Origin: Nannobrachium achirus
Taxonomy: Eukaryota; Chordata; Actinopteri; Myctophiformes; Myctophidae
Length of the DNA stretch: 64,000 nt
Direction: 5' to 3'
Assembly: GCA_963921795.1 (NCBI GenBank)
Contig: OY997650.1
Span: forward strand, 17,776,862-17,840,861
Under the pieces are notes generated by a model. The model was not told where the DNA came from. It did not search any database and was given only the letters and a program-made list of their open reading frames with translations. Positions within the stretch are counted from its first letter, which is position 1. Each line of letters opens with the position of its first letter. Shown in pieces: positions 1 to 62,465 of this stretch. The position numbers and the translations under genes were made by a program.

Positions 1-3000
1 TAAACATATTGTTCAATCTGAGAGAAAAATACAATTACGAGTGGATGTGAATTTCGTGTTTAACACAGGAGCAGTGGGAGGGGTGTTAGCAAATGATTGA
101 TAAAGAGCTGCGTGAAGTTCAAAACACAGTCATTAAGTGCCAGTGGTTGTGTTCTCAGGCGTGCGCTCGAGGTGTTCAGACAAAGAAGGTTTCACTGGGG
201 GTGGGGGAGAGGGGCAAAGTGTTTGACCCAGCACTTGAGGAAACAGCCGACACTTTGACTACAGTAACTGTCAGCGGAAAGCCTTTCTCTGGGTCATTAG
301 GATTGCTGAATGCTCATTTGATCCTGAGCACCAAGGAGCCTGCAGAGGTTGAGATCAAAGCGTTTTCCTGGAACCCATCCCCCTCTCCGCCTCTGGGCTT
401 CACGCTCCACTGACTGCACGTATAGCACAGGGTCGATGGAGACAGCTAGGGGCTTTGCTGTGAACAACAGCCGAGCAGAGCCCAGACAGCACAGTTTCCT
501 CAAAAGAAAAACACACCATTTGAAATGGGTCTCGAGATAGTCAAGCTCTCAGCTTAACTTCATGTCCGAACCTTGGCTGACTGACCCGAAATAAGAGACT
601 CAAGGTTTTCGACTAGCTGCACTGCCGGGTATGAAGATTCTACGTGAGATTTACAAAACATCTATTGGGAACATGATGTTGTGTTTTGGTGAAATGTTCT
701 GAGAGAAAGAACCAAAAAAGGGTCAATACTTTTGGAGGAATTGTCTGCATCCAGCACCATCTGAAAAGAATCTGGGGCCAACAGGAGACCAACTTCAACA
801 AGCAATGGACGGCTATCGGTCTTGTCCTGCGGCTGCCTGTTCTTGGTCTGAGAGAGAGAGAGAGAGAGAGAGAGAGAGAGAGAGAGAGAGAGAGAGAGAG
901 AGAGAGAGAGAGAGAGAGAGAGAGAGAGAGAGAATGAGAGAGAGAAGGATTTTTTTTTCAAAGATGTTTTCTTTGATGCTCCTCATTTTCTATTGTATAA
1001 TCTGTCCTCAGCAGGCGTGCTTTCTCCTGTGTCTCACAGCATGCAATCCAAAAACCATTAGATGTGGCTTTGAAACCCTATAATGCATGACATTCCACCT
1101 GGTCATGTCACCTGGTTTTATCTTAAAGCAATTGCACAATGACATATTTTTACATACGACAGATCAAAAGTACTCACAATGAATTTCAAATATATTGTAA
1201 TGCACCAGTAGCAGTCACAAAAGCATACGCTGTTTAACTCTTATTGTGCCTATCCCGAACTAGTTCGGGATAGTTTGGACCTTATTAACGTTCGGGGTGC
1301 CAATCCCGAACTAGTTCGTCTTTTTTTTTTTCGAGCCGGGCCGCCGGCCGTCATCTGTTTACACGGCCCGCGAGAGCGTTGCGCCGCCGATATTTGCCAT
1401 CCACTCCAATGCAATCCAGGATCTTTAGAGCTCATTTTCTCTGTTCCATGCATATCCATGAGGTGTGCAAGGTTTAATCACGGCTAAATCGCCGAAAATA
1501 GGGCTTCTAAAATGCTTGGTAGCCAATAGCTAACTTCAAGCTAACTTCATCCTGTTCCTGTTCATGCACAAAGGAAAGTGTTCAGGCGCGTCATGGCTGC
1601 GCACGGCTTGTGCATATACAGCGTATGTCTATGGTGGATTCTATGGCCATTGGGCGCCCTCTAGTGGTGATTCTGGGCACTGAAAGGGTTAAGAATCTGC
1701 AACCTGCATTGATCTAAGTTGTTTGAGTTGAGCGGCCCAATCCTTTGGACTATCAATGTACAGAGTTGCTGCCTTGTGATTGGCTGATTCAGCGTTAAGG
1801 AGCCGTTGGACAAGTGTACCTAAAAAGTGAGAATTTTCATGTTTTCATTTGTGAAAGCAATTCACCAGCCGTCAAATTCTTCATATCTGAACACACATTA
1901 CTTACTGGCAAATGGTTCATTTACAACACCATTGTGCATTTACTGTATATATGCAATACAATGATTGTGCTTGTGTGACAGAGAACCTGTTGCAGAAGCA
2001 TGGCTGCCTTGTCCTCAGTCCTGGAAGTGGCCTGGTAGAGGCTCCCCCTGAGCTGCAGGAGGTGGACTGCTGTGGAAAGATGTTCTCGCCACGTCCCGTC
2101 ATCCAATAGCAAGGCTTTGTGAAGGTGCGACCACGCCGCATCAAACCGTCCCTCCTCCTCCTCCTCAATCACTGCCAGCTCAGAGTGAACCTGACAGCGG
2201 GTGTCCAGCAACATACTGTGGAAAGAATGCACATACGCATGCAGGCACGCATGCATGCAGGCACACACACACACATACACAGCAGACAGACAGACAGACA
2301 GACAGACAGACAGACAGACAGACAGACAGACAGACAGACAGACACACACACATACAATATGAAAATGAAACGCAAACTGGAAAAAAACTAAATGAATACA
2401 AGCCAGAAGCATACATTTAACACATTTTAATAGTACATGCACATCACTGACAGAAAAAACTAATCTCCCTTACCCCCCGGCTCCACCGAGCGCGTCGAGC
2501 GTCGCGTCAACGTCAACGTTGGGAACGCTCCCGTTTTAATCAATGAAGGGAGCTCCACTGCCGACGGTAACGTCAACGTCGGACGCTCCGGTGCCGGCGT
2601 CCAAACTAAAAAATTGCCCCGGTTCAATTTTTTGACGGCGTCCACAACGTCCAGTCATGTATAAATTATGATTAAATGTAATTGCATTGCATATTAAATG
2701 TATATATACCGTACATGCCTTTCTGCTGTTGGATATCCATTCACGTCATTCACAAGGGTGACTAGATGTCCCAAAATTCCTCGCATATTTTTTTATGTAA
2801 TTACAGTGGTCTTCCCACTTGATATAGGCTAATCACAAGTTCACAACAGGCAACAACTTTCTCAATTCTTCCTCCTAAAAACAGGCCAGCAGTGAGTGAC
2901 TGAGTCTGATTTTAGGCTATACATTATCGTGGCTGCGCTGGACTGGTGTACCGAAAATAGCCAATCTACAAGCTCAGACACAGTCACAACAGCATGATGA

Positions 3001-6000
3001 CAGATTCATGCACTCGACATGTTGTGAGCTTGTATATCTGCTATTTTTTTCCGGCACTTTACACAGCATAAATTATTATAATTAGGCATATATAACACTA
3101 CAGTTGATAATGCGAATATCCTATGATCTTTGATTGAAATATCAACACATTCACGTTCAGTGGAGCAAGTCGGACGGCAACGTGTCTGCGTCAATGACGC
3201 CGTCAAGACGCAGAGCAACGCGACGCAGCCAGTGGAGCCCTGGGGTTACACGGGTAGATGCACAAGTGCATGCACAATGGCACTCACAACCTAGCCTCGT
3301 AAACCTCCTCCTGCTGGAGTGATATTCTATTTGCTCACTAGGAAGAGACTGGTTTACGAGGCTACTCACAACCATCATTGCATCACTGTCACCTCTGCGT
3401 GTTCTCCAGCACTTGGGCCACTCTGAGGAGCTCGGCCTTGATGTTCCTCCGTAAGTTGGGCTGCAGGAGGGGCAGGCAGGCCCTCCACTGGGAGGCACAC
3501 ACTGCCTGCATAGAGCCAGGGTCGCCCTCTCTCTCCGCGCTCTGTAGACACTGATCCAGTTTGCGTATCTCCTTCAAGCGCTCCTTCCAATGACAAATAC
3601 AGACAGACAGACAGGCTAGGCGATATCTCTCCAGTAGCAATGAGTTTTGCAACGCTTAGGGGATACTGTACAAGACCAAGCAGAGATTGTTCCATGATAT
3701 TGATTTGATACAATTGTGTGTGTGTGTGTGTGTGTGTGTGTGTGTGTGTGTGTGTGTGTGTGTGTGTGTGTGTGTGTGTGTGTGTGTGTGTGTGTGTGTC
3801 TGTGCATGCGTGCATGCGTGTGTTTTCCTCCCACACACACACACACACACACACACACACACACACAATATTCAAGCTAGTGTACATTACAAACTAGAAG
3901 CAGTGCTCTTCCGAGCACAGGTCTCCACCAGGTAAGGTTGGTCCTGGTGGCGGTAAATGTGAAAAGGGTGCCATGTCTTCTTTGGCCTTTAATAGCAATG
4001 TGACCCTGCATGACTTGAGGCATTTTGTTCCAAAAATGTGTTTGGAAAAAGTCAACCTGCTGGTGGCGCTATAACAGGCCAATGTGAAAAGGGTGGCATT
4101 TGTTCCTTGACCTAGTGGGAATGTACGTGCAGAATTTCTCTGTAATCACAAGCTGCGTTCATTATTTAAGTGATTTTGTTCAAAATGGACCAATCCTGCA
4201 AACTTTGGAAGCCAATGTTAGCCAATTAGGATGGAATATGAAATATCGGACAGATCTGTCTTGATCACATGACTATAGAGATACTGTGTACTGATTTGCA
4301 TGATTTTTGGATAAAATCTCAAGGAATAATAGGAAAAAATGTGTTTTACATAAGTCGTATAAAAGGCAGATATGAAAAAAGCAGGGCAAAGGTTTTTCCT
4401 TGGCCTCTAGGGAGTGCACATACAAAGTTGTACACTGATCAGTGGAGTTATAGATAAAAACACGAATCGGCCTGTTATAGCACCACCATGAGGCCGATTT
4501 GAAAACATTTAAGTGGCATTTATTCCTGTGCCTATTGGGAATGTGCATGCACAATTTTACCAAAATCGCATACTGCGTTCATGATTTCAGGCATTTTATT
4601 CAAAAATGACCAATCCTGCTAACTTTGGAAGCCAGTTTTAGCCAATCAGGATGGAATATGGAAAATCGGACAGATCCATGTCGATCACATGACTGTAGAG
4701 ACAATGTCTACCGATTTGCGTGATTTTTGAGTACGGGCAATAGTTAGTTTTGAAAAAAACGGCCTCCTGGTGGCGCTAGAACAGGCCCATCTGAAAAATG
4801 TGGGGCAGAGGTTCTGAATTGGTATCCAGGGAGTGTGTGTGCACAGTTTGGCAGCGACCGGGCCAACGGCGCCGGAGATTAGCTGGTAACGGACGGACGG
4901 ACGGACGGACGGACGCACACACGGACGGACGGACGCACAGACGGGCGGAAGGGAAAACATACTCTCCCCCATGCCTTCGGCTGGTGGAGACAATTAACAA
5001 GTTCTGCAGTTAACAAGAGATTTACCATGGTAATCAATCAAGTATGATAGGTATTTTTAGCACTAGTGGAATGTATCGTTGGCCAATTAGCTTGCCAGCA
5101 TTCTACATTTTAATTAGATGAGATTTTAAAAAAAGAGTTCAGGGCATTCATTAACATGCTTTGGAGACAAACACATGGACATGTCATGATGGAGCACCTC
5201 CACACAGGCTTTGGAGTAGTCATTCATCTTCCCCTCTTTACTCAGAAGACAGAGTTCACACTGGACACACTCCATCATTATGCGCTGGCCAGCAGTCTGC
5301 AAAGACAAGTTCTCGTTGTGATTTCAGGAGGCTGGGTCCAAGGAATTATCACAGTGCACTTTTCATCTACAGTAGCCCATTGTTGTTGTCAGGTGGAAAC
5401 CTTGTATGTCCAAAACCGTATTGTTTTGTATTTATCATTTAAAAAAAGATTTAAACAATGAAAATAGCCGATCTACAAGCACACACGCCTTGCACCGTGG
5501 GGCGTTGTGTGCTTGCAGATCTGCTATTTTCACTAGATTTGTGCGACACTCTTGTATGATGAAGCAGGGCTTTACTTTACGAAAAACCTACAAATTTGGA
5601 ACTTGGAGATACAAGGTTTCTGCCCGACAGTGACGATATGCATGAAAGGGGCGTTGTGATTAAAACTACATTCACCCTGGCATCCCTATTTTGGGCATGT
5701 CATTATAGGAAAGATTATTTCAAGACACGTCGTGAGCTATTTTCACCGCACGACACCGGTGTACGACAAAGTATAGAACGGGCTTAAGTGGTTAAGATCC
5801 GTCAGCAGACAAGAAGCATGTAAATGTGCCCATTTCAACCAAATCTGTTTTAAATGGCGGAGATTAATGGAGAAAAGTGGCAAGCCCTCGTGGGAACACT
5901 CAGCTGTTTTATCGCATCTCTTGTCATGTGCTCCCCCACGGAGCGTGGGCGTCAAATTGTGTGTATTCATTTGCATAAATTCATCATATGTGACGGTGCA

Positions 6001-62390: not shown

Positions 62391-62465
62391 AAAAAATAGC
62401 AGATCTACAAAGCTCACAACGCATCACAGCGTGACTTGTTGTGAGCTTTGTACATTTGCTATTTT
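62391..62465. repeat. hairpin module copy H14
   Basis: AAATAGCAGATCTACAAAGC and GCTTTGTACATTTGCTATTT with inner TCACAACGCATCAC / GTGACTTGTTGTGA. Its flank GGCAAAGGGGTTTGGTGTAG is shared, inverted, with H11. Confidence 0.85.

What the first reader, a model, noticed from the sequence alone, without database searches (positions are those of the whole stretch)
2953..62465. A recurrent hairpin module nested in several unrelated repeats
Fourteen places (2953, 5460, 6830, 7232, 13346, 16512, 17364, 20122, 37672, 44820, 48848, 58253, 58666, 62391) carry the arm AAATAGCAGATCTACAAGCT and/or its inverted partner, usually as a stem-loop of 65-105 nt. The inner loop (often CACAACGCG-like) varies. The surroundings fall into at least four unlike repeats: a 780-bp TIR element, a GTCG-type MITE, a CAGTGGTTCTCAAACC hAT-like MITE and a GGAAAAAGTACTCAA hAT-like MITE, plus a fifth context shared by H11 and H14. 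A module present in the same position in two copies of each host, yet shared across hosts, suggests either a self-mobile foldback element that prefers palindromic centres or exchange between MITE loops. Some copies (17364, 6830) have collapsed to bare arms, as expected from hairpin deletion.
Basis: partly seen in the sequence, partly recalled or inferred. Interest (0 to 1): 0.85.

Follow-up and report, generated by a model that had tools for sequence, protein, structure and literature searches.

The report
One hairpin inside many mobile elements
A single 75-base DNA hairpin sits inside a dozen or so different small jumping elements of this fish-like genome, in several hundred thousand copies, apparently carried along as a passenger after it entered the founder of each of those element families.

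Summary
13 of 14 places carry the arm at 3 or fewer mismatches (18 matches, 0 expected); 17364 is a collapsed copy. The 1.66-Gb genome has 633,369 arm matches, about one hairpin per 5 kb. In 350 kb, 245 hairpin units have flanks in 12 groups seen at two or more loci. Hosts include a TTAA-ended element (P), hAT-like elements with 8-bp duplications in some copies, and a TATCGTC-ended element (B). The hairpin (H) looks like one module: arm consensuses are 78-97% alike and 18 of 25 untargeted non-P hairpins share one stem mismatch, which P lacks. H follows its host (90 of 104). Short-gap sites in B, G and P (83, 25, 46) vary in length; 99 of 154 keep arm letters. No single H-less ancestor stands out, though a B form (8 of 83) could be one. 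H edges show no fixed target duplication but a short inverted repeat (77 of 176 against 54.8). A B-P chimera search found 0. Best reading: a passenger hairpin multiplied by its hosts, which entered founders as a unit; the route is not shown. Present self-mobility and frequent exchange are not supported.

The parts
2953..3052 (+). hairpin copy, host not identified
5378..5638 (+). B element (TATCGTC-type ends); hairpin at 5458-5534
6787..7364 (+). P element; right end TTAA, left end reads AAAACCC; subterminal hairpins at 6830-6876 (collapsed) and 7232-7306
13305..13518 (+). B element; right arm and inner stem of the hairpin kept (about 13360-13412)
16512..16621 (+). hairpin assigned to an A-type (hAT-like) element by its match to 58687-58751; not assigned by flank clustering; an A end lies at 16972-16993
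17022..17454 (+). Q element (hAT-like ends) with P-derived sequence; collapsed hairpin 17362-17400
20118..20190 (+). hairpin of an A-type element; GGCTGAAGTGGTTAA motif at 20218-20232
37605..37748 (+). CAGTGGTTCCCAAACC end and hairpin 37664-37744; not assigned by flank clustering
44815..44855 (+). half-hairpin (left arm only)
48778..49055 (+). part of a D element (hAT-like end 49042-49055) with hairpin 48843-48893
58231..58324 (+). larger imperfect palindrome containing one hairpin arm (58254-58273)
58660..58959 (+). A-type element: hairpin 58660-58740, hAT-like end 58938-58959
62391..62565 (+). hairpin with the long D-internal flank on its right only

Best explanation
H is one palindromic DNA module of about 75 bp with a single origin, now multiplied almost only as a passenger inside other transposons. 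Shown: it is inside 12 repeat groups with largely different flanks; in groups with several copies it has a fixed place and its own version of H; H tracks the host; one stem mismatch recurs in most groups other than P; H is lost again and again by deletions of many different lengths. Inferred: H was already in the founder copy of the host families, and was multiplied by the host's own transposase (hAT-type, TTAA-type, and another for B). Inferred and weaker: it entered founders as an intact unit without a fixed target duplication, most likely when the two ends of a longer transposon were joined at the birth of the MITE, with an existing hairpin copied in as filler or inserted at a small host palindrome.
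For:: 316,916 + 316,453 arm matches (2 or fewer mismatches) in 1.66 Gb; reversed-pattern control 1 + 0; 107 units in 264 kb of untargeted sequence; 80 assigned (P 37, B 16, D 7, A 6, E 5, others 9); 245 units in 350 kb, 27 flank clusters; element ends around H: P with TTAA (both ends in 3 of 6 copies, one end in 3); D with exact 8-bp duplications in 2 of 8 copies and 7 of 8 letters in 2 more; Q exact in 2 of 7 and 7 of 8 letters in 1 more. One copy each of A and of L027:5589-5810: 7 of 8; arm consensuses of ten groups 78-97% alike; nearest neighbour in the same host group 90 of 104 (26 of 39 outside P). A/C mismatch in 18 of 25 untargeted non-P hairpins with both arms scored; inverted match at the base 77 of 176, shuffled mean 54.8, reached by 3 of 10,000 shuffles; 83, 25 and 46 short-gap sites with 79, 24 and 36 distinct forms, 45, 20 and 34 keeping an arm 6-mer; 3,908 B sites at full gap; 2 matches, each with 2 mismatches, to the junction expected of D without its H-bearing insert.
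Against: 27 of 107 untargeted units are unassigned, so the share of solo hairpins is only bounded. 55 of 154 short-gap sites keep no arm 6-mer, and a recurrent B class (8 of 83..TAAACTACTTTTG) could be a true empty site with a TA or ACTA duplication rather than a deletion between ACTA repeats. P, the commonest host, lacks the shared mismatch (A/A in 76 of 88). A, D, F16 and J share a GGTTNAAGTGGTTAA-like motif, so the groups are not all independent. P has two H, one in each long inverted repeat, which a simple joint model does not predict. No parental autonomous element was found. H-less elements also exist (cluster 11). Arm conservation is inflated because copies were found by their arms.
Confidence: 0.5

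Rival explanations
1. H is the core of one superfamily of TTAA-ended (piggyBac-like) MITEs, which inserted into several hAT elements and was then amplified by them; the other contexts are decayed nested copies.
For: P is TTAA-ended and lies inside hAT Q. D holds TTAACCACTTGAACC..H..GGTTCAAGTGGTTAA in a fixed place. Outward GGTTAA is enriched 20-119 nt from H: 37 against 7 of the opposite orientation in 243 flanks, though P and D make up most of these.
Against: B, G, E, I and K copies are not among those with GGTTAA near H. The D empty-site search gave no convincing match, so nesting in D is not proved. The Q empty-site search did not complete.
Confidence: 0.25
2. H was an ordinary self-mobile palindromic MITE (for instance TA-targeting, with co-varying ends); solo copies have decayed and only those in active hosts stay fresh.
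For: Near-perfect palindrome; in B the flanks read TA|GTGAAAA..TTTTCAC|TA; the 8 recurrent H-less B sites, on four backgrounds, equal the predicted empty site.
Against: No constant duplication over 52 paired units, at most two per flank-family pair, beyond weak scattered excesses. Divergence of H between groups is of the same order as that of host flanks from their consensus, so solo copies should still be visible, yet few intact ones are. The P recurrent class (5 of 46) fits deletion between TGAAAAA repeats, not TA.
Confidence: 0.18
3. H spreads between MITEs by recombination at its arms, which exchanges half-elements.
For: One D+P chimera (L100); half-shared flanks at 48848/62391 and in F26 and F21.
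Against: 0 matches for the one B-P joint searched genome-wide with exact anchors; H tracks host. Other joints were not searched.
Confidence: 0.1
4. H is kept because it helps its host multiply (transposase or host-factor site, cruciform, or small-RNA source).
For: The largest repeat cluster in the untargeted sample is the H-bearing one (117 segments, 92 with H within 150 bp), though the hairpin itself may have merged several families into it.
Against: H loss occurs in dispersed copies; a cluster with hAT-like ends and no H exists (cluster 11, 4 segments); no Rfam match in the window. No test of function was possible.
Confidence: 0.15

Closest known systems
Nested MITEs and MITE multimers (rice; quoted in PMC10664404, passages read)
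   Same: one small palindromic element beside or inside another, then amplified together
   Different: here one module is shared by 12 flank groups and no single H-less form stood out in three families tested
Conserved central domains of SINEs, such as the V domain (PMC6887750, search listing and start of abstract only)
   Same: a domain shared by otherwise different elements and spread with a DNA transposon
   Different: here it is a DNA hairpin inside DNA transposons
IS1272 stem-loop-replacing transposition (PMC5678879, passages read)
   Same: insertion at inverted repeats without target duplication
   Different: bacterial, with its own transposase; here insertion was not observed
Templated inverted insertions at breaks (PMC11724301, abstract and outline read)
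   Same: short fold-back inverted duplications (most about 5-34 bp) and templated filler at breaks
   Different: yeast repair products, not an amplified repeat
Palindromic repeats M1/M2 of pithoviruses (PMC10664404, passages read)
   Same: very abundant short palindromes, movement unclear
   Different: putative TA duplications reported there; not described as shared by many element families in the passages read
Angel (zebrafish) and MADE1 (human) short palindromic MITEs (recalled, not read)
   Same: short, nearly perfect palindromes in high copy number
   Different: they stand alone in the genome, as far as I recall

Membership tests
piggyBac-like TTAA MITE (element P) | TTAA at both ends | tested here: met
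   3 of 6 copies at both ends, the other 3 at one end
piggyBac-like TTAA MITE (element P) | mobilised by a piggyBac transposase | not testable with these tools
   no transposase tested; the name rests on TTAA ends and recall
piggyBac-like TTAA MITE (H itself) | TTAA at the edges of H | tested here: not met
   flanks of H in 52 paired units
hAT-like MITE (hosts D, Q) | 8-bp target duplication and CAGNGG-type ends | tested here: met
   D exact in 2 of 8 copies, 7 of 8 letters in 2 more; Q exact in 2 of 7, 7 of 8 letters in 1 more; the remaining copies do not match
hAT-like MITE (host A and L027:5589-5810) | 8-bp target duplication | tested here: inconclusive
   7 of 8 letters in one copy each
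Self-mobile MITE (H itself) | constant target duplication at the element edge | tested here: not met
   B alone clearly compatible with TA
Self-mobile MITE (H itself) | solo copies at unrelated sites with empty counterparts | tested here: inconclusive
   27 of 107 untargeted units unassigned; 4 of 30 paired non-P units unassigned
IS1272-type stem-loop replacement | target is an inverted repeat, no duplication | tested here: inconclusive
   inverted base at H edges but no pre-insertion site seen
Known RNA family | Rfam match at gathering score | tested here: not met
   0 matches in the window

The most novel reading that the evidence does not exclude
The hairpin spreads from one MITE family to the next at their birth: when the two ends of a longer transposon are joined after an aborted gap repair, a copy of an existing hairpin is built into the joint as templated filler, so many of the abundant MITE families of this genome are born with the same hairpin and have no H-less ancestor.
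Probability: 0.2. Interest if true: 0.85.

Novelty: new variant of a known kind. Interest (0 to 1): 0.6.

Why it matters
How MITE families are born is an open question. A marker hairpin shared by many families with different ends would let one date and order those births, and test whether MITEs arise by hairpin-guided repair. With about 380 arm copies per Mb the hairpin is also a dense source of fragile sites and of repeat-to-repeat recombination in this genome.

Tried and rejected
Rejected: chance; one old repeat with a single set of flanks; frequent half-exchange at H, as far as one joint tells; a known RNA family. Not settled: arm-to-arm copying within a hairpin. Complementary double changes were 13 in P against a shuffled mean of 2.9 (maximum of 500 shuffles 11), 4 in D against 0.74 (maximum 4, so reached), 2 in B against 1.5; subfamily structure could give the same, and the persistent stem mismatch speaks against strong copying. 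An early note that the 'C' repeat is a hAT MITE was wrong: it is the TTAA element P. A candidate M-like element without H (L010 1900-2060) is too diverged to decide. Led nowhere: paper searches for 15- to 16-mers of the arm (0 papers); a paper search for the assembly size (no match to this genome); viral contigs (0; one 18-base match, L109, without a partner arm); genome contigs (0).
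Full report
OBSERVATION. The arm AAATAGCAGATCTACAAGCT has 18 matches at 3 or fewer mismatches in the window, none in 100 shuffles, at 13 of the 14 listed places; 17364 is a collapsed copy. Folds of all 14 are: eight long stems, two collapsed, two with the inner stem only, two half-hairpins. The window is part of a 1,658,514,493-bp assembly in 564 contigs, where the arm at 2 or fewer mismatches occurs 316,916 + 316,453 times, against 1 + 0 for the reversed pattern. 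One hairpin per 5 kb assumes two arms each.

SAMPLE. I examined 350,256 bases: the window, 20 x 10 kb taken without regard to H, 8 x 3 kb, 20 x 1.2-1.8 kb and 60 x 0.6-1.0 kb chosen because they hold the arm, all on contig C1. An arm profile finds 245 units, 150 with both arms. In the 264 kb not chosen for H (this includes the window itself) there are 107 units: P 37, B 16, D 7, A 6, E 5, others 9, unassigned 27. Arm density there is 477 per Mb against 382 genome-wide.

HOSTS. Flanks cluster into 27 sets, which I merged by hand into 12 groups seen at two or more loci: P, B, D, A, G, E, H', F16, I, F21, J, F26; several rest on two loci. They are not all independent: A, D, F16 and J share a GGTTNAAGTGGTTAA-like motif, and by eye one F16 flank resembles D's. 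Ends were read for some. P runs TTAACCCATTTAG..CTAAATGGGTTAA, 489-610 bp in six copies, with H near both ends; TTAA at both ends in 3 of 6, at one end in 3. D has hAT-like ends, CAGGGGTCTTCAAC, with exact 8-bp duplications in L020:1479-1944 and L041, 7 of 8 letters in L032 and L033, and no clear match in the other 4 of 8 copies; it holds a TTAACCACTTGAACC..H..GGTTCAAGTGGTTAA insert in a fixed place. Q has hAT-like ends, CAGGGGTGTCGCACC and CAGGGGCGTCAC, with exact duplications in L036 and L048, 7 of 8 in L038, and none exact in the other 4 of 7; it carries P sequence. A: 7 of 8 letters in L024, read. L027:5589-5810 is a 222-bp element with hAT-like ends, 7 of 8. B has TATCGTC..GACGATA ends; its target duplication is not settled.

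ONE MODULE, CARRIED BY HOSTS. Arm consensuses of ten groups are 78-97% identical over 36 nt, while flanks differ apart from the motifs above. In the untargeted sample, of 30 paired non-P hairpins 25 could be scored on both arms at one stem position: 18 A/C (either way round), 3 A/A, 3 A/T, 1 C/C. The 18 lie in D, H', E, I, B, A, F16 and three unassigned copies. P differs: 76 of 88 are A/A. I take this as one ancestral hairpin that moved as a whole unit. The nearest neighbour of a hairpin, same locus excluded, lies in the same host group for 90 of 104 (64 of 65 in P, 26 of 39 elsewhere). Arms are over-conserved by the way copies were found.

FILLED AND SHORT SITES. With exact anchors, B has 3,908 sites at a gap of 85-115 (those listed carry H) and 83 at a gap of 5-35. 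G has 25 short-gap sites and P 46. Counted on all listed strings: B 79 distinct forms, 45 of 83 keep an arm 6-mer; G 24 forms, 20 of 25; P 36 gap forms, 34 of 46. So the short sites are mainly deletions of many lengths, but 55 of 154 keep no arm 6-mer. One B form (..TAAACTACTTTTG, 8 of 83, on four backgrounds) equals a deletion between flanking ACTA repeats and would also be the empty site if H had a TA or ACTA duplication. One P form (5 of 46) equals a deletion between TGAAAAA repeats. The D short-gap, Q empty-site, I and P full-gap searches did not complete. The junction expected of D without its insert gave 2 matches, each with 2 mismatches.

EDGES. In 52 paired units, at most two per flank-family pair, no direct repeat of fixed length stands at the H edges, apart from scattered weak excesses of 3 to 8 units at single offsets; instead left and right flanks match as inverted repeats for roughly the first ten positions. 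With the first paired unit of each assigned group plus 8 unassigned ones (22 in all): 77 of 176 positions, shuffled mean 54.8, reached by 3 of 10,000 shuffles. Thus H stands at the apex of a short palindrome that differs between hosts, or its own stem base has diverged by family.

EXCHANGE. One D+P chimera (L100) was seen among 150 paired units. A genome-wide search for one joint, B-left/H/P-core with exact anchors, gave 0; other joints were not searched.

CONTEXT. In the untargeted sample the largest repeat cluster is the H-bearing one (117 segments, 92 with H within 150 bp), though the hairpin itself may have linked several families in it. Clusters without H exist, among them one with hAT-like ends (4 segments, cluster 11), so H is not a requirement.

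READING. Shown: one kind of module in many hosts, carriage with the host, recurrent loss. Inferred: presence in each founder and amplification by the host's transposase. Conjecture: entry as filler when the MITE joint was made, or insertion at a small palindrome. IS1272 (PMC5678879, passages read) shows that inverted-repeat targets without duplication exist; PMC11724301 (abstract and outline read) shows fold-back insertions, most about 5-34 bp, at breaks. Neither shows what happened here.

NOVELTY. My searches listed no paper that I recognised as describing this module; the library holds only open-licence papers and I read few of those listed, so this is weak evidence.

Noticed in passing
window 20918-32653: A 3,912-bp unit occurs three times in tandem, identical in the 300-base pieces compared: a recent duplication or an assembly artefact.
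   Followed up: no
window 51563-54688 (+): Open frame of 1,041 aa with a reverse transcriptase domain (E 7.6e-36) and an endonuclease match below its curated cut-off (E 0.00031): a non-LTR retrotransposon with a long open frame.
   Followed up: partly
window 18183-19880: Tandem arrays with units near 140 and 293 bp.
   Followed up: no
L004 630-755: A 25-bp tandem array, six units found, built from the hairpin arm.
   Followed up: no
L045 495-640: The hairpin arm is duplicated in tandem within one hairpin.
   Followed up: no
L044 488-613: Two hairpins with inverted flanks beside a microsatellite.
   Followed up: no
L010 1900-2060: An M-like stretch without the hairpin, too diverged to call an empty site.
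   Followed up: partly
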